NCBI GenBank assembly: GCA_944392205.1
Contig: CALXVV010000041.1
Location: 1 to 63,191 of the forward strand
DNA: 63,191 nt
Reading direction: 5' to 3'
Source: an uncultured Alphaproteobacteria bacterium
GTDB lineage: Bacteria > Pseudomonadota > Alphaproteobacteria > RF32 > CAG-239
This document shows positions 1,879 through 63,191 of the stretch, piece after piece. Both the position numbers and the translations under genes were made by a program. A model generated the notes under the pieces. That model did no database searches. It was not told where the DNA came from and saw nothing but the letters and a program-made list of their open reading frames with translations. Within the stretch, counting starts at the first letter, position 1. The number at the start of each line of letters is the position of its first letter.

Positions 1879-4410
1879 CTATTCTACATCATTATCTTGA
1901 AGAGATTCTTCATAAAATTTTGTGTAGTCCGTAAAGCTTTCTACGTCTCTGACTATAGAATCGATTTGATTGATGTCAACCTTATCTTTTTCTAGCTGAT
2001 TGGTTAAAATATTAAAAATGCTATGATATTCCGTATTGGCAAAATAAGGCAAAAACTTATTGCGTAAACGAACTAAAACAGTTTCTTTTCCGGCTTTTTT
2101 CAAAGTCGTGGCCCAGTCCAATATGTAGTTGACCTGTTCTATAGACAGTGGTTGGCCCACTTTGGGCTCTTCTATCAAATATTTTACGGTGGCGGCCGCA
2201 TCAGCCCAACGTCCGGCTTGCCAATAAAGTTGAAATTTATGAATGAGAGCATTCTTGCTGTAATCATTGGCAAGCAGTGCAAGGGCTGCATCTGTTTGGC
2301 CGAGCTGTGCCAAAGCCCTGGAGCGTATTACTCGGCGCGGGCCTATGGTGGCCAGCGAAAGACCTACGGAATTTGTCCTGTCTAAGATCTCAATTGCTTG
2401 ATTGGGGGCCTGCTGAAATAAATCTATGATGGCTAACCTGGCGCCAATGCGTGCTCTGTTCTCGGCTGTGAGATCTTGTGCCTCTAGCACCTCATTTAAT
2501 AAATCAGAAGCTCGTGAAAGAAGATCTACGGCAACCAGTCTGTCAGCCAGGCGTTGCATGATGGCGTTCTTCTTGGTACTCATATCTGCCAGCCATTGAA
2601 AATCTTTGTATAAAGCCAATGCTTTAACCGGAGAAAGTTTGCTGTCTGCCTGGTTGCTCAAGAAGATACCTTCAAATACCCTTATCATTCGATTGGCTAT
2701 TTGTTGTTTTTCTTTTGCGTCTTGAACAAAGTTGCCGGCGTCATTTAAAGTACGGAGGGCATTGTAGTAGTCAAAATCTTTTAGATATAAATCAGACAAT
2801 TTGTTTAGCAGCTTTAACTTAAAATCCTTTTCTCCCCAGGCAAATCTAAGCATTTCAAGTTCCGCAATAGCTTCTTTTAGGGGGATTGCACCGATGCTTT
2901 GGCTCAAAGTGGCATTATCGTAGCGAGCTAGAGCCGAGTATTTTATCGAATCTCCGTTAATAAGTGTTCGGTACTCTTTTATGGCATTGCGCGGATAGCC
3001 CTGAAGCTCAAGTTTCTTGGCTGCCAAATAGGTTATTTCCGGATTTAAATTTCTCAAACGGTCAGGAACTGAGCGTAATATGTCTATAAAGTTTTGAGAG
3101 GCAAGATCATCTCCTGTACGCAGGGCATTCCTTGTCGCTACGAGGGCAATTTGATCTTTGATAGCTTGTGGGTAATCTCTCATGAGAGATATCAAGGAAA
3201 ATATTACGGCGTTGTTTGATTCATCAAATTTGTAAGCACTCTGAGATAGGGTGCGCCAAAATGTTCCTTCACTTAAATTCGGAATATTTCCGTATTCAAA
3301 ATCTTTTACGGCTTCGGGGTAGCGCCTTGCCAGAGAATTGGCAACACCACTCAAAGCGTGAAAACTATCGGTTCTTGATTCCGGTAGGTCTGCTCTTTTT
3401 ATTTGGTTTAATATGTATAACGCATTGGTTCCTAAACCATTATAGATATAATATCTTGCCAAATCTATCCGTGCTAGGTTTTTCTCTGCTGCAGGAGCAT
3501 CTATGATGTTCTTTTTTAGGAGCTCTACGGCATCAACAAATTTCATGTCTATCTGTTTTTGCGGTATTTGTAGATTAAACGCCGGTGCCGTTAACTGTTC
3601 GTCTTTTAGCATTTGCTGCCGTTTGAGCGCATCTAAATCTCCGGTGATGTTGAGACTGCGTCCTTGGGCACGTAAGGTTAATCCTGAGTTGCCGCGGGAT
3701 AGCATGATGTCTGGCGCATTGATGACAAAGGCCAAACCTTGGAGCGTGCTTAAAATATCAAATTCCGGATAGTGGTAAAAAGATTTTGTACCTAAGTGCG
3801 GACGCGATGAGGTGGCAACACTGATGATGTCACCAATCTCTGGGTCTATGATCGAGATGACATTTCCTGCGTATTCAGTCGGAATGTATAAGTATGGCTG
3901 TTTCATACTGTCATATTGAGTAAATATGGTAAGCTCTTTAAACGGCTGTTGTGGCAAGTCATCCGTATATAAATCCAAAATCCATAGCAACCCTTCTTTT
4001 CGGACGGCGCTTTTTACGCCTTTGGCAGGGGTTACTTGTATCAGACTGCCTAAGGGGTGCGGAAATTGAATGATGTTTTCTGCTAATTCTCCGGCAGTCT
4101 TCTTTAAATTTTCAATATTTATTTGCTGCGGATGATCAAAAATTAACCACAATTTGCCGTTGCGTTCAAAAGCTGCCAAATTAACAGGTGTATTCCAGGC
4201 AAAACTCAGACTGGCAATGCGTTTCTTTTGTGCTTGCGCCGGAGAGGCTAAGAATGAGGAAGTCTTGGTATTCTTTATGCTTTCTACTCTTATCGGCTTT
4301 GTCTGCGCTGCTGCAGGTGTATTTTCTGTTTGCGGCAAAGCGGCATTTGTTGCTAACGGAAATAGCAATAAACTTAAAAAAATATATATGTATTTCTTCT
4401 TTGCCAACAA
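1879..4410 (-). CDS. Large secreted or membrane-tethered TPR-type protein of the flagellar cluster
   Basis: An 843-residue protein with an N-terminal hydrophobic signal (residues about 8-23, ending near TNAALP). Residues about 60-280 are beta-rich. From about residue 290 onward there are repeated helix pairs of TPR/solenoid character, for example [20 protein letters not shown] and [18 protein letters not shown]. It follows motE by 15 bases and precedes uvrB directly. A long TPR protein in this place after motE is, as I recall, common in Rhodospirillales-type flagellar clusters, so a periplasmic flagellum-associated role is inferred. The start is a TTG at 4410 (a second TTG is at 4407) and the ribosome site is weak. 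No enzymatic motif is visible. Confidence 0.8.
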
Positions 4411-4425
4411 AATTTATATTCCAAG

Positions 4426-5073
4426 TTAAATATTGTTCCCTATTAGTTCTGCTGTTACAGCCTGTGCTTTCTGTGAATCCATTTGTGATAAAATGGCTGA
4501 AGAACTTGATGGCTTCATCCCTTTTAATAAAGCTACCGTAATATTCATATCCAGATTGTTGAATATGCGGGCGGCATCTTTGGGTTTCATTGATGTATAC
4601 ATCTTGACCATGGCATTTAAATTCTCTTGTTCTTGTTCAGAATAAGCGTTTATCAACTTTTGCAATTTTTGTTCGTAATCTTTCAGCTGACGCAGTTTCT
4701 TATTGATTTCTTCTTCCGTTACTTTTAGCTGAATGGCTCTCTTGTCAATCTCTTGAGCCCTTAAATCCAAGGCCTCACGTCTTTCGGCAAGTTCTTGCAA
4801 AATCATTATCTCTGATTGGGTAAAAGCGGTATTGGCCGGAGGCTCTTCTCCTTTGTTGTCCGGGGCTCCTCCTTGTAAAACCTTTGAAAGAGCCGCCGTT
4901 TCTTGGTTGAGCTTTTCTTCTGCCAAGGCTTGTGCTGTCGAGATGCTTACTTTTTGCTTTATCTGATGATTGTATAAATCAAAGACATTGTTAACTTTTA
5001 TGCTCAGTGTTAGTACTGCCATGAAAATAAGAATCGGTAAAATGCGGATTTTGTTTTTTTTGTTTCTTAACAT
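4426..5073 (-). CDS. motE: MotE-family flagellar motor chaperone-like protein
   Basis: A 215-residue protein with one N-terminal membrane segment (about residues 10-28), a long charged coiled coil (about 80-150) and a C-terminal MgtE_N-like helical domain containing MKPKDAARIFNNLD and AILSQMDSQKA. This is the architecture of alphaproteobacterial MotE, known as a periplasmic chaperone for the stator-associated protein MotC. The ATG at 5073 has AAGGA just upstream. It lies between the DUF6468 gene and the TPR gene in the fliL-fliM run. The family call is firm; the role follows from the family, and motC is not in the window. Confidence 0.85.
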   Translation of the reverse strand: MLRNKKNKIRILPILIFMAVLTLSIKVNNVFDLYNHQIKQKVSISTAQALAEEKLNQETAALSKVLQGGAPDNKGEEPPANTAFTQSEIMILQELAERREALDLRAQEIDKRAIQLKVTEEEINKKLRQLKDYEQKLQKLINAYSEQEQENLNAMVKMYTSMKPKDAARIFNNLDMNITVALLKGMKPSSSSAILSQMDSQKAQAVTAELIGNNI

Positions 5074-5088
5074 GTTTGGTCCTTAATA

Positions 5089-5526
5089 TTATTTTATGGA
5101 GCGTAAAGCTTTCAGAAGCTCAAGCTCTGCTTCTGAGCGGGTGTCTTCTTTGTCTGAAACTGATGGCTCTTGCGAGGCCTTCAGATTTTCCGGTTTTATG
5201 GTTCTGCCGGTGCTGATTACATTCTCAAGTCGGTCTGCCAAATTGTCTGCTCGCTCATTGATGAAAAGCAAATCATCCTTGAGTTCTTTGGCACTGTCAA
5301 CAACTTCTTTTAATCCTTCAGAAGAGTGTTCAGTCACCGATTTTAGTTTCGGAATACTGTTTTCTGCTTTGAAGGTGGCCTCGTTCAATGCATTAACCAA
5401 CTGCGCCAAACTGCTTTGGTTTTGGCGCAAAGCTTTCAAGTTATTGTTTAGGCGATATGCATAAACAATTGTCGGAATTAAAAGCGCAATGATGATAATG
5501 TTGATAATTAATTCAAGATTAGCCAT
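5089..5526 (-). CDS. DUF6468 flagellar-cluster membrane protein
   Basis: A protein of about 145 residues beginning MANLELII with a membrane segment at residues 5-22, then a helical, coiled-coil-prone domain. It matches the DUF6468 family found beside fliM and motE in alphaproteobacteria; its biochemical function is unknown. The open frame could start 21 bases upstream at 5547, but the ATG at 5526 has AAGGAAAGG before it and begins directly at the membrane segment. It overlaps the end of fliM by 8 bases, which suggests translational coupling. Confidence 0.82.
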   Translation of the reverse strand: MANLELIINIIIIALLIPTIVYAYRLNNNLKALRQNQSSLAQLVNALNEATFKAENSIPKLKSVTEHSSEGLKEVVDSAKELKDDLLFINERADNLADRLENVISTGRTIKPENLKASQEPSVSDKEDTRSEAELELLKALRSIK

Positions 5527-6577
5527 CTTTTTCTGCCTTTCCTTCAACTCTAATGACTATGTGGTCGTCTTTTCTGCCCATGGCTCCCTTAAATAAGGGA
5601 ACATCTCCGCAAACTATGTTGACATGTTCTGTCGGCGGAATATCCAAGGGCAAAAATGAACCCTTTTCCCAAGCGGAAATTTCCGCTAACTTAATGTCCT
5701 TTTCTTTTAGCACTGCTTTTATTTCAACTTCGGTGTCCCATAGTTGATTCATTAAGTGGTTTTCCCAAATGGTGTCTCGACCGAAGCGTTCTCCCATAAA
5801 CATTTGGAGCAAAAGTTCTCGAACCGGCTCCAGGGTTGCATAAGGAATCATTAAATCTATCTTTCCTCCGCGATCTTCCATATCAATTCTTAGGTGTGCA
5901 ACAATGACTGCATTCGACATTCTGGAAATGGCGGCAAAACGCGGATTGGTTTCTAATCGGTCAAAGGTAAAAGAAACCGAGGTTATAGGATCAAAGGCTG
6001 TTGATAAATCGCTTAAGATTAGCTGTATCATATCTTTGACGATATTTAACTCAATCGTTGTATAGGGACGTCCTTCAATTCTCATGGCGGCAGTGCCTCG
6101 GCGGCCACCCAGCAAAACATCTACCATTGAGTAGACTAAGGAACTGTCTAAAGACATTAAGCCGTAGTTATCCCATTCTTCTGCTTTGAAAACGTTTAGC
6201 AAAGTTGGAAGTGTGAGCGAATCGATGTACTCACCAAAACGCATGGACTCAATGCTATCTAAAGAAACTTCAACGTTGTCTTGTGTAAAGTTTCTCAAAG
6301 AAGTGGCCATAAGGCGAATCAGGCGGTCAAATACAATTTCAAGCATCGGCAGGCGTTCATAAGATACCATGCTGGAATTGAGAATTGCTCTTACCCCCGT
6401 CGTTTGCTGAGTATATTCCGTATCTGTATCTTTGCCATAGCCTAGCAGACTGTCTATCTCATCTTGATTTAGTATCTTAGAATCCGGGGAGGACGCAATA
6501 TCACTATTGTTGTCTTTTACCTCTATGCTGTCCGCCCAGTCTTTGCTCGTTTCTGCTGTTTTGTTTTCTTCTGCCAC
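5519..6577 (-). CDS. fliM: Flagellar motor switch protein FliM
   Basis: A 352-residue C-ring protein that binds CheY-P and, with FliG and FliN, sets the direction of flagellar rotation. The CheY-binding peptide LNQDEIDSLLG is at residues 36-46, after an acidic, low-complexity extension of about 35 residues that many FliM proteins lack. The middle domain contains SVSFTFDRLETNPRFAAI, and the C-terminal SpoA-like domain contains the segment PLDIPPTEHVNIVCGDVPLF. The start is GTG at 6577 with AGAGGA upstream. It lies 12 bases after fliL and overlaps the DUF6468 gene. Confidence 0.95.
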   Translation of the reverse strand: MAEENKTAETSKDWADSIEVKDNNSDIASSPDSKILNQDEIDSLLGYGKDTDTEYTQQTTGVRAILNSSMVSYERLPMLEIVFDRLIRLMATSLRNFTQDNVEVSLDSIESMRFGEYIDSLTLPTLLNVFKAEEWDNYGLMSLDSSLVYSMVDVLLGGRRGTAAMRIEGRPYTTIELNIVKDMIQLILSDLSTAFDPITSVSFTFDRLETNPRFAAISRMSNAVIVAHLRIDMEDRGGKIDLMIPYATLEPVRELLLQMFMGERFGRDTIWENHLMNQLWDTEVEIKAVLKEKDIKLAEISAWEKGSFLPLDIPPTEHVNIVCGDVPLFKGAMGRKDDHIVIRVEGKAEKDG

Positions 6578-6589
6578 GATGGTTTCCTC

Positions 6590-7114
6590 TTAATCGCTTG
6601 CTGTCTGTATTTCCAGAGATTTAATGTTTAAGTTGTTTATTTTAATAGGGGCTGTCGCCAAATTTAGGCGATATAAAAGCTCTTCTTTTAGCCAATAAAG
6701 GCCGGTTGATCCTTGTACTTCTTCCGGAGTAAGTTCAATGATGTGCGTTAAAACAACATCATTTATTTTGGGGAGAAGAAGTTCTATTGTCTTGATGTCT
6801 TCAACATTGGATAGTTCTAAGTTGAGACGTATGTGCAAAGTTTGTTTATCTGGCCCTTCCGTGTGCAAATTGGCGGTAAGTTCGGGGAGATCATAAAATA
6901 CGGTAATGCTACCTTCTCCCTCACCACTTTTTTGGACAACACTGTAGGTTGCCGGGGTTGTGTGGTAGTCCCGATTAAAGGCATAGTATAAACCCACAGA
7001 CAGGCCGACAACTATCAACACCGGCAAAAGAAATATCAGCATCTTTTTGCGGCTTAGTTGTTTGGGCTGATTGACTTCATCTTCATTGTCTATATCATCT
7101 TCCTGGTCGAGCAT
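6590..7114 (-). CDS. fliL: Flagellar basal body-associated protein FliL
   Basis: A 174-residue inner-membrane protein: cytoplasmic acidic and basic N-terminus, one membrane segment (about residues 26-47), and a periplasmic domain with the FliL pattern YDLPELTANLHT near residues 93-104. FliL surrounds or stabilises stator units at the flagellar motor. The ATG at 7114 has a strong GGAGG. It is the first gene of the minus-strand flagellar operon; the 240-base gap to the divergent pilus-like genes probably carries promoters for both directions. Confidence 0.92.
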   Translation of the reverse strand: MLDQEDDIDNEDEVNQPKQLSRKKMLIFLLPVLIVVGLSVGLYYAFNRDYHTTPATYSVVQKSGEGEGSITVFYDLPELTANLHTEGPDKQTLHIRLNLELSNVEDIKTIELLLPKINDVVLTHIIELTPEEVQGSTGLYWLKEELLYRLNLATAPIKINNLNIKSLEIQTASD

Positions 7115-7345
7115 GAAACCTCCGGAGTGTTATCGCTTCCAGTTTTATTTTCCTATACTATAACATTAAAATTTATAATTAAACGTAAATTTCTTAGTTA
7201 TGCAAAGCTTAGCTGTCGCTTTTTTATAAAATGACAAATTGTCTTTTGCCTTTTGTTGCAGATTTGTGAATTTTAATAAATTTTGCTTGTATTTAATAGA
7301 TTAGAAACCTTTTTTGTGGTAAACTTGTACGTATATGGAATAATT

Positions 7346-7353
7346 GGAGGAGG
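7346..7353 (+). promoter_or_regulatory. Shine-Dalgarno GGAGGAGG that fixes a GTG start
   Basis: The purine-rich GGAGGAGG lies 5 bases before GTG at 7359. An upstream in-frame TTG at 7344 overlaps this ribosome site, so it is unlikely to be the true start. Confidence 0.7.
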
Positions 7354-7358
7354 CCCTG

Positions 7359-8045
7359 GTGTATATCTGGGTGATTTTGGCTACATTCTTGGCTATATTG
7401 GCGTCTTACACGCTGTCTGTGCGTCCGGACATGCGGGAGTTGTCTGTTGCCAGAATGGCCGAAGCTGCGTTGGGACGCCTTGTCGTTCAGCATGAGGCCG
7501 CTCTTAATTATGTAAAATACAACAAATATCCGTATTCTGCCAGCAGAGATAAGGTCGATTATGCTCCGGGAATTATTAGTGATGGGGATTTATTGGCTGA
7601 AATGCCTTATGGACATTCTTTGGATGGACAATATACCAGTAAAATCTTTTGTATGAACCAAGATATGACCGTGGCTTTTGGTAATGCCGGGGCGGAGAAT
7701 CCTTGCGATGTCGCTGATAATCGAAAAATGGTGGTAACCTATGGGCCGATACCGACGCGTTGGTTGAGCTTGTCTTCAGCCATGGAGCGGCCTAATACCG
7801 ATTTTTTGAATGCCCTTTGGAATATGGTAAGCTCAGGAGAGGAATTTGGTTATATGTTACCTGCTTTGGCATCAGACGTCCATGTCAGTGTAGAAAATCC
7901 ATCTGCATCCAATGTGCAGTTGGCAACAAGGCCGGGGGCTGAACTCGTCTTTGTTCCTAAGGCTGTGGTCGAAGATGCTGATTTTAAATCAGTCTGCGAT
8001 TTAGAGGAAAATTTTGTTTGTTTGGTTTATATGAGCGGAATTTAA
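7359..8045 (+). CDS. Single-pass envelope protein paired with the PilV-like gene (possibly PilM-like)
   Basis: About 228 residues. The N-terminus is a membrane segment (VYIWVILATFLAILASYTLS) with almost no leader, followed by a globular domain with cysteines near KIFCMNQ, NPCDVAD, KSVCDLEE and NFVCLVY, suitable for periplasmic disulfides. It lies 21 bases before the prepilin-like PilV protein, so the two are probably one operon. In IncI-type thin pili, pilV is preceded by small pilus genes such as pilM with a similar single-anchor layout. The resemblance here is architectural only and the family is unproven. Confidence 0.6.
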   Translation: MYIWVILATFLAILASYTLSVRPDMRELSVARMAEAALGRLVVQHEAALNYVKYNKYPYSASRDKVDYAPGIISDGDLLAEMPYGHSLDGQYTSKIFCMNQDMTVAFGNAGAENPCDVADNRKMVVTYGPIPTRWLSLSSAMERPNTDFLNALWNMVSSGEEFGYMLPALASDVHVSVENPSASNVQLATRPGAELVFVPKAVVEDADFKSVCDLEENFVCLVYMSGI

Positions 8046-61587: not shown

Positions 61588-61723
61588 ATCTTTATGCAAA
61601 AAAGATTATAATCTAAAATACAGAACTTGTTTTTGTGGAAAAGTCCTCCGTTTTTCTGGCAACCGATGTTGAAAAATATATAATCGAGGCTGGTATACTT
61701 AAATAGAGAAATGTAGGGGACTT

Positions 61724-63191
61724 ATGAGCGGAATTAGCTTAACCGCATCGATGCGGTCGAATTTGCTGAGCCTGCAAAACATCAGCGGGCAGGTTTCCTC
61801 TACTCAAAATAAGCTCTCAACGGGAAATAAAGTAAATTCCGCCATAGATAATCCAAGTTCTTACTACACGGCGCTTTCACTGAATAATCGTGCAGATGAC
61901 TTGAACGCTTTGCTCGACAGTATGGGCCAAGCGGTGAGTACGATTAAAGCCGCCACCACAGCCTTAGAAAGCGCCACCGAGTTTCTGGAGCAAGCGACGG
62001 CAATTGCCACACAGGTAAATTGTAGCTCTTATGTTCCGGAAAAGTCTTATTTTGAAGAAAAAGTCGGTGAGAACGGTGCCGTCGTGACGACTGCGCAAGA
62101 GCTAAAAGATGCCATAGCTGCCGGTAAAGAAACAATTTGTGTTTATGGCGCCATAGATTTGGGCGATATCTCGACATCTGGCGGATTAACACTGCAGGAG
62201 AATCAAAAACTCGTCGGAGTTGGTTATTATGGTAACTTCGGCACCAAGGGAAAGGATTTTTCTTCCATCAGCGCCTCAGCAGACACCAAAGCTCAGAACC
62301 TCATTACCATCAACAAAACCGGCAATTTGGTTAGCGACTTGAATATAGATTATAAAAGCTCTTTGGCGGATACGAATGGATATGCTGCTATTCGTGTGAA
62401 TTCTAAAGCTGAAGCAGATTTAAAAAATTTGAATATAGATGCCAATTTTGCGGCAATTAGGAATTATGGGCAACTCGATTTAGATGGCTCATTTAATATA
62501 AAAACAGATGCAGAGTGGGGAAGGGGGATTACAACAGAGAATGATGGCATTTGTAATATTAATGCAAATGCCAGATTAGATATTGAAACTTATCAAAATA
62601 CATCGATAGGAATAGTTTCTGTCAATGGTGGTGTCACCAATATCAATTCCGGCTCTTTGATTAGAATTAATAGTTTAAAATATTATAGTTTATGTGCACA
62701 TCAGAATTCGACACTGAATATTGCGGAAGGAGCCGATATTTATGTCGAAAGCAATATTTCTAGTATATTAGTCTATTCAGGTACTTTAAATATTGCCGGA
62801 AATTTGTATAGTAATAGTGGTGTTACCACAACGATGGACAATTGCCGTATCCATATTGGTGCGACAGCTCAGATATATTCCGGATATAATGGCAGTGGCC
62901 TTTCTGTTGGTACTAGTAGTGCTAATCCCAACATTCTAGACATTGCGGCGGGGGCGAAGATAGCTTTTGAGAAAAACGGTGCCACCAAGTGGTACGAGCT
63001 TCAATCTGATTATAATTACACGGCTTCAACAGCTGGGGTTAATATTTCTTATGATAATGCCGACAGTATTCTAAATGTAGCTAACACCGGTTCTTGGAAG
63101 ACGGCCAAAGATGTTATTGCCGAACAAGAGCAAAAAAATCAGGAAGAAGAAAATAACACGAGCTTAATAGAAACAGATGATTTAATCAGCT
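61724..63191 (+). CDS. Flagellin with a beta-helix-like insert, 3' end outside window
   Basis: At least 489 residues in one open frame from ATG 61724 (AGGGGA upstream). Residues 1 to about 98 are the flagellin D0/D1 N-terminus: LTASMRSNLLSLQNISGQV, QNKLSTGNKVNSAIDNPSSYYTALSL and a helical stretch to IATQV. From about residue 100 the usual hypervariable domain is replaced by AQELKDAIAAGKETICVYG and many short Asn/Gly/Ile-rich repeats (IRVNSKAEADLKNLNID, LNIAEGADIYVESN, LNIAGNLYSNSG), like a right-handed beta-helix of pectate lyase or adhesin type. The C-terminal D1/D0 part must lie beyond the window. Surface-exposed filament decoration is inferred. Confidence 0.85.
   Translation, partial: MSGISLTASMRSNLLSLQNISGQVSSTQNKLSTGNKVNSAIDNPSSYYTALSLNNRADDLNALLDSMGQAVSTIKAATTALESATEFLEQATAIATQVNCSSYVPEKSYFEEKVGENGAVVTTAQELKDAIAAGKETICVYGAIDLGDISTSGGLTLQENQKLVGVGYYGNFGTKGKDFSSISASADTKAQNLITINKTGNLVSDLNIDYKSSLADTNGYAAIRVNSKAEADLKNLNIDANFAAIRNYGQLDLDGSFNIKTDAEWGRGITTENDGICNINANARLDIETYQNTSIGIVSVNGGVTNINSGSLIRINSLKYYSLCAHQNSTLNIAEGADIYVESNISSILVYSGTLNIAGNLYSNSGVTTTMDNCRIHIGATAQIYSGYNGSGLSVGTSSANPNILDIAAGAKIAFEKNGATKWYELQSDYNYTASTAGVNISYDNADSILNVANTGSWKTAKDVIAEQEQKNQEEENNTSLIETDDLIS

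What the first reader, a model, noticed from the sequence alone, without database searches (positions are those of the whole stretch)
61724..63191. Flagellin carrying a long beta-helix-like domain in its surface-exposed region
The first ~98 residues are a clear flagellin D0/D1 half, yet the next 390+ residues read as Asn/Gly/Ile-rich repeats of the kind that fold as a right-handed beta-helix, opened by a typical capping segment (AQELKDAIAAGKETICVYG). Enzyme- or adhesin-decorated flagellins are known (flagellinolysins), but a beta-helix of this size is unusual. It could make every filament subunit a ligand- or glycan-binding or glycan-degrading surface. The seen part is the frame and the repeats; the fold and function are inferred.
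Basis: partly seen in the sequence, partly recalled or inferred. Interest (0 to 1): 0.75.

Follow-up and report, generated by a model that had tools for sequence, protein, structure and literature searches.

The report
Flagellins with swappable beta-helix surface domains
A small-genome gut bacterium carries about fifteen flagellin genes whose filament-building ends are nearly identical while most have a large beta-helix on the outside that differs from gene to gene and has been replaced at the same chromosomal spots in its closest relatives, so its propeller looks like a constantly changing display surface.

Summary
The ORF at 61724-63191 is a flagellin N-terminal half followed by a right-handed parallel beta-helix (AlphaFold pLDDT mostly 90-98; structural Z 21-26 to adhesins, tailspikes and pectinases). 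It runs off the contig, but a 90-nt overlap leads to a contig carrying a flagellin C-terminus, and a 71%-identical homologue is complete.

The larger finding is that this is one of 14 such flagellins (plus one plain flagellin) in a 1.38-Mb genome. Their cores are almost identical in protein (N-terminal pN 0.025 against pS 0.50), while the outer domains differ (median 41% identity). In three sister genomes, flanking DNA at the same loci is 84-97% identical, yet the outer domain was replaced in 11 of 13 comparisons, including at the window locus (27-28% identity). One locus is empty in all three sisters. No catalytic residues are conserved, so a glycan-degrading enzyme is unlikely.

Best reading: a non-enzymatic, diversified display surface (binding and/or evasion), changed by recombination between dispersed gene slots. 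In other species of the genus the outer domain is a C-type-lectin-like Lcl_C domain, and in one a diversity-generating retroelement mutates it. Function is untested; all genomes are metagenome assemblies.

The parts
61724..63191 (+). Flagellin gene with beta-helix outer domain; 489 codons inside the window, 3' end beyond the contig
   Evidence: open frame; Flagellin_N; 90-nt overlap into contig C24 carrying the C-terminus
61724..61999 (+). D0/D1 N-terminal half (residues 1-92), nearly invariant among 14 paralogues
   Evidence: pN 0.025, pS 0.50
62075..62236 (+). N-terminal cap of the beta-helix (residues 118-171), the conserved part of the insert
   Evidence: invariant columns; strands and helices
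62237..63085 (+). Right-handed beta-helix body (residues 172-454), variable between paralogues
   Evidence: pLDDT mostly 90-98; Z 21-26; median pN 0.47
63104..63190 (+). Start of the C-terminal D1 helix (residues 461-489)
   Evidence: continues in contig C24 and in L074
61634..61723 (+). Upstream block shared in part with paralogues: TGTGGAAAAGTCCTC..., TATAAT at 61679-61684 and AGGGGACT ribosome-binding-like site. The near-identity of the flanks to sister genomes falls off around here
   Evidence: promoter function is inferred from the consensus only

Best explanation
The gene encodes a flagellin that polymerises through a standard D0/D1 core and carries a non-enzymatic right-handed beta-helix as its outer domain, pointing outward from the filament. 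It is one slot of a dispersed multigene set of 14 such flagellins. The cores are held constant so that all can go into filaments; the outer domains are under pressure to differ. Diversity is produced by recombination: whole genes or outer domains are replaced at fixed chromosomal slots using the conserved leader, N-terminal and C-terminal sequences as homology, and slots are also gained and lost. The product is a filament surface that varies between species, and possibly within a cell, serving binding to host, mucus or other glycans and/or escape from antibodies, flagellum-specific phages and predators. Shown by sequence: gene family, conserved core, divergent outer domains, replacement at syntenic loci, an empty slot. 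Predicted: the fold. Inferred: assembly into filaments, homologous recombination as the mechanism, display function, selective agent.
For: 15 flagellin genes in a 1.38-Mb genome, 14 with the insert. Fold. Core against surface: N-terminal pN 0.025 and pS 0.50, helix pN 0.47. Outer-domain replacement with flanking DNA 84-97% identical in 11 of 13 syntenic comparisons over 8 loci, with identity falling to background at codon 91-183 or already in the leader. At the window locus the sister flagellins share 95-96% of the N-terminus but 27-28% of the outer domain. The C14 slot is occupied here and has no flagellin in three sisters. At the C11 slot a sister has an Lcl_C-like outer domain instead of a beta-helix, i.e. 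exchange between folds. Long runs of identical codons between otherwise diverged paralogues, exceeding all 1000 shuffles in 58 of 91 pairs (p<=0.001), fit gene conversion (partly explained by conserved cores). The weak sequence match of some inserts is to a 'pectate lyase-like adhesive domain', PF20585. In G048 a diversity-generating retroelement targets a flagellin of this kind, an independent sign that surface change is selected.
Against: No binding, motility, expression or filament data. pS in the helix is saturated, so positive selection in the strict sense (pN>pS) is not shown; relaxed constraint plus recombination would look similar. All genomes are metagenome assemblies, and repeated genes often end contigs. 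Two comparisons (C26 and C3, each against G051) keep their outer domain at 93-97%, so not every slot turns over.
Confidence: 0.6

Rival explanations
1. Pure evasion: the beta-helix has no ligand; it is an exchangeable antigenic or phage-receptor coat, and only difference matters.
For: Outer domains differ strongly between paralogues and are replaced between close species; no helix residue apart from structural ones is conserved.
Against: The same fold is kept across most of the set, and the alternative domain used in the genus is Lcl_C, a C-type-lectin-like domain and a common target of retroelement diversification (DUF1566 in PMC6642488). That suggests binding matters.
Confidence: 0.25
2. Glycan-degrading or glycan-modifying enzyme displayed on the filament, as the first reader suggested and by analogy with flagellinolysin.
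For: The best structural matches include alginate epimerases, pectinases and lyases.
Against: In 25 aligned homologues the near-invariant helix residues look structural (D205, N235, G403 and hydrophobics); no conserved Asp, Glu, His or Arg cluster; no catalytic Pfam family matches. The fold is equally shared by adhesins (Vag8, SRRP, pertactin).
Confidence: 0.08
3. Mechanical role: the bulky outer domains thicken or stiffen the filament or make lateral contacts, e.g. for swimming in mucus or rumen fluid; sequence variation is drift.
For: Outer-domain contacts are reported to matter for motility in viscous media (abstracts of PMC8931119 and PMC10256154).
Against: Drift does not explain replacement of the domain, even by another fold, at loci whose flanks are 94-97% identical, nor an expansion to 14 copies.
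Confidence: 0.1
4. Assembly or binning artefact that joins unrelated repeats.
For: Several copies end at contig ends with exact 127-nt or 90-nt overlaps, as expected at k-mer forks.
Against: Seven of the 14 decorated copies are complete inside one contig. The family recurs in independent assemblies from other samples, including genomes of 7-20 contigs.
Confidence: 0.03

Closest known systems
Flagellinolysin (flagellin with M9-like metallopeptidase insert; PMC5595980)
   Same: Functional domain inserted in the flagellin outer region; filament multiplies it many times
   Different: Insert is a protease with HExxH; here a beta-helix without conserved catalytic residues, in a large paralogous set. 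That survey reports 61 domain families in flagellin hypervariable regions; whether a beta-helix is among them was not visible in the passages read
Multi-flagellin Alphaproteobacteria (Caulobacter FljK-N; Rhizobium leguminosarum, seven flagellins, PMC2936354)
   Same: Several flagellins with shared core in one alphaproteobacterium; Caulobacter flagellins are the closest solved relatives
   Different: The solved Caulobacter flagellins are 270-273 residues, too short for an outer domain of this size
Right-handed beta-helix adhesins: SRRP of Lactobacillus reuteri, autotransporter passengers Vag8 and pertactin
   Same: Same fold; Vag8 and SRRP are the two best structural matches (Z 25-26); surface-exposed
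   Different: Anchored to the cell wall or outer membrane, not part of a flagellar filament; 11-16% sequence identity
Flagellar phase and antigenic variation (e.g. Salmonella H antigens; from general knowledge)
   Same: Constant core, variable exposed region, change by recombination
   Different: Usually one or two loci; here 14 dispersed slots, presence/absence of slots, and exchange between different folds
Diversity-generating retroelements targeting DUF1566/Lcl_C domains (PMC6642488)
   Same: In same-genus genome G048 the flagellin carries a beta-helix-like part plus an Lcl_C domain with a TR/VR pair
   Different: Window genome has neither reverse transcriptase nor Lcl_C. 'Flagellin' appears once in that paper's list of target annotations, without detail in the passage read

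Membership tests
Bacterial flagellin | N-terminal D0/D1 helical domain | tested here: met
   PF00669 E 8.8e-11, residues 11-99; helices 8-99
Bacterial flagellin | C-terminal D1/D0 helical domain | tested here: inconclusive
   Not in the window. 90-nt overlap to contig C24 with a flagellin C-terminus, shared with C40; complete homologue L074 has it; sister proteins match PF00700
Bacterial flagellin | Assembly into an external filament | not testable with these tools
   FlgG-, FlgF- and FlgH-like genes lie beside the C3 paralogue (recognised by eye); no protein data
Right-handed parallel beta-helix (pectin-lyase-like) fold | Predicted fold matches solved right-handed beta-helices over most of the domain | tested here: met
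   pLDDT mostly 90-98 and Z 21-26, rmsd 2.5-4.3 over 240-305 residues
Polysaccharide lyase, GH28 or alginate epimerase | Conserved catalytic residues | tested here: not met
   No conserved catalytic-type cluster on the helix in 25 homologues; no catalytic Pfam family for 14 inserts. Individual members could differ
Flagellinolysin | Peptidase M9-like (HExxH) insert | tested here: not met
   Insert is a beta-helix; no peptidase family in Pfam
PF20585 Pectate_lyase_5 (adhesive domain) | Score above the gathering cut-off | tested here: not met
   Best E 0.0032 in 2 of 14 inserts; 19.5 bits against cut-off 24.3 in sister L121. Window insert: no match
Antigenically diversified multigene family | Constant core, variable exposed domain, multiple copies | tested here: met
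Antigenically diversified multigene family | Exposed domain replaced by recombination at fixed loci | tested here: met
   11 of 13 syntenic comparisons
Antigenically diversified multigene family | Recognition by antibodies, phages or host, or switching within a clone | not testable with these tools
   No immune, phage or time-course data
Diversity-generating retroelement target | Reverse transcriptase plus TR/VR pair with adenine-specific mismatches | tested here: not met
   Window genome: no RVT_1. Met only in G048 for another flagellin (13 of 15 mismatches at TR adenines)

The most novel reading that the evidence does not exclude
One genus of gut Alphaproteobacteria has turned the flagellum into a modular display library: up to ~20 flagellin slots per 1.4-1.7-Mb genome, a fixed core, and outer domains of at least two folds (beta-helix, C-type-lectin-like Lcl_C, and fusions) exchanged between slots and species by recombination, with at least one species adding targeted hypermutation by a retroelement. 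The filament would act as an evolving receptor or antigen array rather than only a propeller.
Probability: 0.45. Interest if true: 0.87.

Novelty: new variant of a known kind. Interest (0 to 1): 0.74.

Why it matters
Flagellin is a major immune and phage target, yet its outer domain is usually treated as one variable region per species. Here close species keep the filament core and the chromosomal slots but change the exposed domain, even its fold. That makes two questions testable: what a flagellar outer domain is selected for (binding or evasion), and how a reduced genome maintains a large surface repertoire. The outer domains are also natural examples of large cargo carried by a filament.

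Tried and rejected
Viral collection scan with the window protein: nothing. Phage records, protein search with L074: nothing. Sequence search of PDB with the insert profile: only chance-level hits. PHROGs: only scattered single-member hits. Insert profile class-wide: no match in the other 384 genomes drawn, so the sequence family looks restricted to this bacterial family; beta-helix flagellins of unrelated sequence elsewhere are not excluded. The one hit in a sister family (G152) is not recognisably a flagellin: a long repetitive protein with a similar helix, with unread stretches in the record. Literature: 'flagellin' with beta-helix or beta-solenoid gave no paper describing such a flagellin; many subscription papers are not held. 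Gene conversion as sole explanation of the conserved N-terminus rejected: proteins are almost identical but about half of synonymous sites differ, so purifying selection holds it. Within-strain switching, suggested by two contig ends meeting one contig start, is not concluded, since an unbinned repeat copy explains it.

Full report
Observation. The frame at 61724-63191 is real: 489 codons from an ATG with a ribosome-binding-like site, open at the contig end. Residues 11-99 are Flagellin_N. The window is contig C41 of a 1.38-Mb, 45-contig assembly, about 93% complete. The gene lies downstream of a MotA/TolQ/ExbB-type and an ExbD/TolR-type gene.

Fold. AlphaFold with 24-25 homologues gives a helical N-terminal segment, a beta-strand solenoid at pLDDT mostly 90-98, and a helical C-terminal segment, both for the window protein (residues 118-454) and for the complete homologue L074 (639 aa). 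The model matches right-handed parallel beta-helices at Z 21-26 over 240-305 residues: Vag8, Lactobacillus SRRP adhesins, alginate epimerases, tailspikes, pectinases. Plain Foldseek E-values were weak (best 2e-3), as expected for a large two-part model; its top hits are Caulobacter flagellins and polygalacturonases. Pfam gives at most weak matches of some relatives to an adhesive pectate-lyase-like domain.

C-terminus. The last 90 nt are identical to the start of contig C24, which reads on into a flagellin C-terminus. The paralogue on C40 ends in the same 90 nt, so the assignment is not unique; L074 shows the same junction in one gene.

Gene family. The genome has 14 flagellins with such inserts and one plain flagellin. 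They are dispersed among unrelated genes. Outer domains have a median pairwise identity of 41% and differ in length, in part by numbers of ~28-residue repeats (e.g. C31b, visible). The N-terminal 92 residues have median pN 0.025 and pS 0.50; the helix has pN 0.47 with saturated pS. So the core is conserved by selection on the protein, not by recent duplication. C41 and C40 alternate between stretches with no nucleotide difference and strongly diverged stretches, and long identical runs occur in many pairs, which fits gene conversion.

Exchange between species. In sister genomes G061, G052 and G051 the DNA beside these genes is 84-97% identical. At the window locus, identity to G061 and G052 is 94-95% over 3.9-4.0 kb, falls to paralogue level around the leader and the N-terminal region, and to background after codon ~91. 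The sister flagellins there are 95-96% identical in the N-terminus and 27-28% in the outer domain. In all, 11 of 13 comparisons at eight loci show a replaced outer domain (21-52% identity); two (C26 and C3 against G051) keep it at 93-97%. In several cases the break lies in the leader, so the whole gene was replaced. At the C11 locus G052 has a flagellin with an Lcl_C-like outer domain (Lcl_C E 0.032, below the cut-off, but the same sequence type scores better in relatives). The C14 locus has a flagellin here and none in the three sisters.

Distribution. The insert profile matches 35 of 152 genomes of the family, up to 18 matches per genome (matches can be several pieces of one gene), and none of the other 384 genomes sampled across the class. 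In the genus, Flagellin_N counts run from 0 to 20. Named records are uncultured Alphaproteobacteria or proteobacteria from metagenomes, including the RUG series; a gut or rumen origin is inferred from those names.

Function. In 25 homologues the near-invariant residues are in the cap or look like structural positions of the helix; no conserved acidic, His or Arg cluster exists. An enzyme shared by the family is therefore unlikely. A diversified display surface fits the constant core, variable exposed domain, exchange between species, and the alternative use of a lectin-like domain. Which pressure acts (adhesion, antibodies, phages, predators) is not known.

Related finding. In several relatives the outer domain is Lcl_C/DUF1566-like or a beta-helix-like part plus Lcl_C. 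In G048 the flagellin next to a reverse transcriptase contains a variable region whose template lies upstream, with 13 of 15 mismatches at template adenines, the mark of a diversity-generating retroelement. DUF1566 is a common target of such elements, and 'flagellin' is mentioned once among target annotations in PMC6642488. The window genome has neither part.

Limits. All genomes are metagenome assemblies. Nothing about expression, filament composition or binding was measured. The structural statement is a prediction, strong for the fold, silent on function.

Noticed in passing
L188 (G048:C2:131000-141000): flagellin 3523-5910 (-), RT 6437-7882 (-), TR 7856-7974, VR 4436-4554: Diversity-generating retroelement targeting a flagellin: beta-helix-like part plus Lcl_C outer domain, 13 of 15 TR/VR mismatches at template adenines.
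   Followed up: partly
L157-L163 (G045): At least seven flagellins whose outer domain is Lcl_C/DUF1566-like, differing strongly in the WSSSE...VR stretch, although no reverse transcriptase was found in that genome.
   Followed up: partly
L167-L169 (G034), L172 (G054), L174 (G048), L175 (G035): Flagellins that look like a beta-helix-like part followed by an Lcl_C-like part in one protein (by eye; Lcl_C matches).
   Followed up: no
L189, L195, L205, L196 (G049, G054, G062, G043): Further TR/VR-like repeat pairs near reverse transcriptases in the genus, the G049 one inside phage-like genes; G043 and G063 have 26 Lcl_C matches each.
   Followed up: no
L014:6473-6630 (-) and the same region upstream of C40, C31a, C31b, C13, C2: Conserved 5' leader of many paralogues forms a long hairpin (-49.7 kcal/mol, z -5.2); 46 consensus pairs, changes mostly keep pairing, only 2 pairs with both sides changed; no Rfam match. 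Could be a regulatory leader or a MITE-like remnant. The window gene has a different, shorter leader.
   Followed up: partly
L212 (G051:C107), gap about 2260-3392: The flagellin-free C14 slot in G051 holds an IS200/IS605-like transposase gene, recognised by eye.
   Followed up: no
L210 (G152:C82): In a sister family a similar beta-helix occurs in a long repetitive, apparently non-flagellin protein, a possible source of the outer domain.
   Followed up: no
L019 (C3): The flagellin beside flagellar rod/ring-like genes (FlgG, FlgF, FlgH-like) keeps its outer domain at 97% in G051, unlike most dispersed copies.
   Followed up: partly
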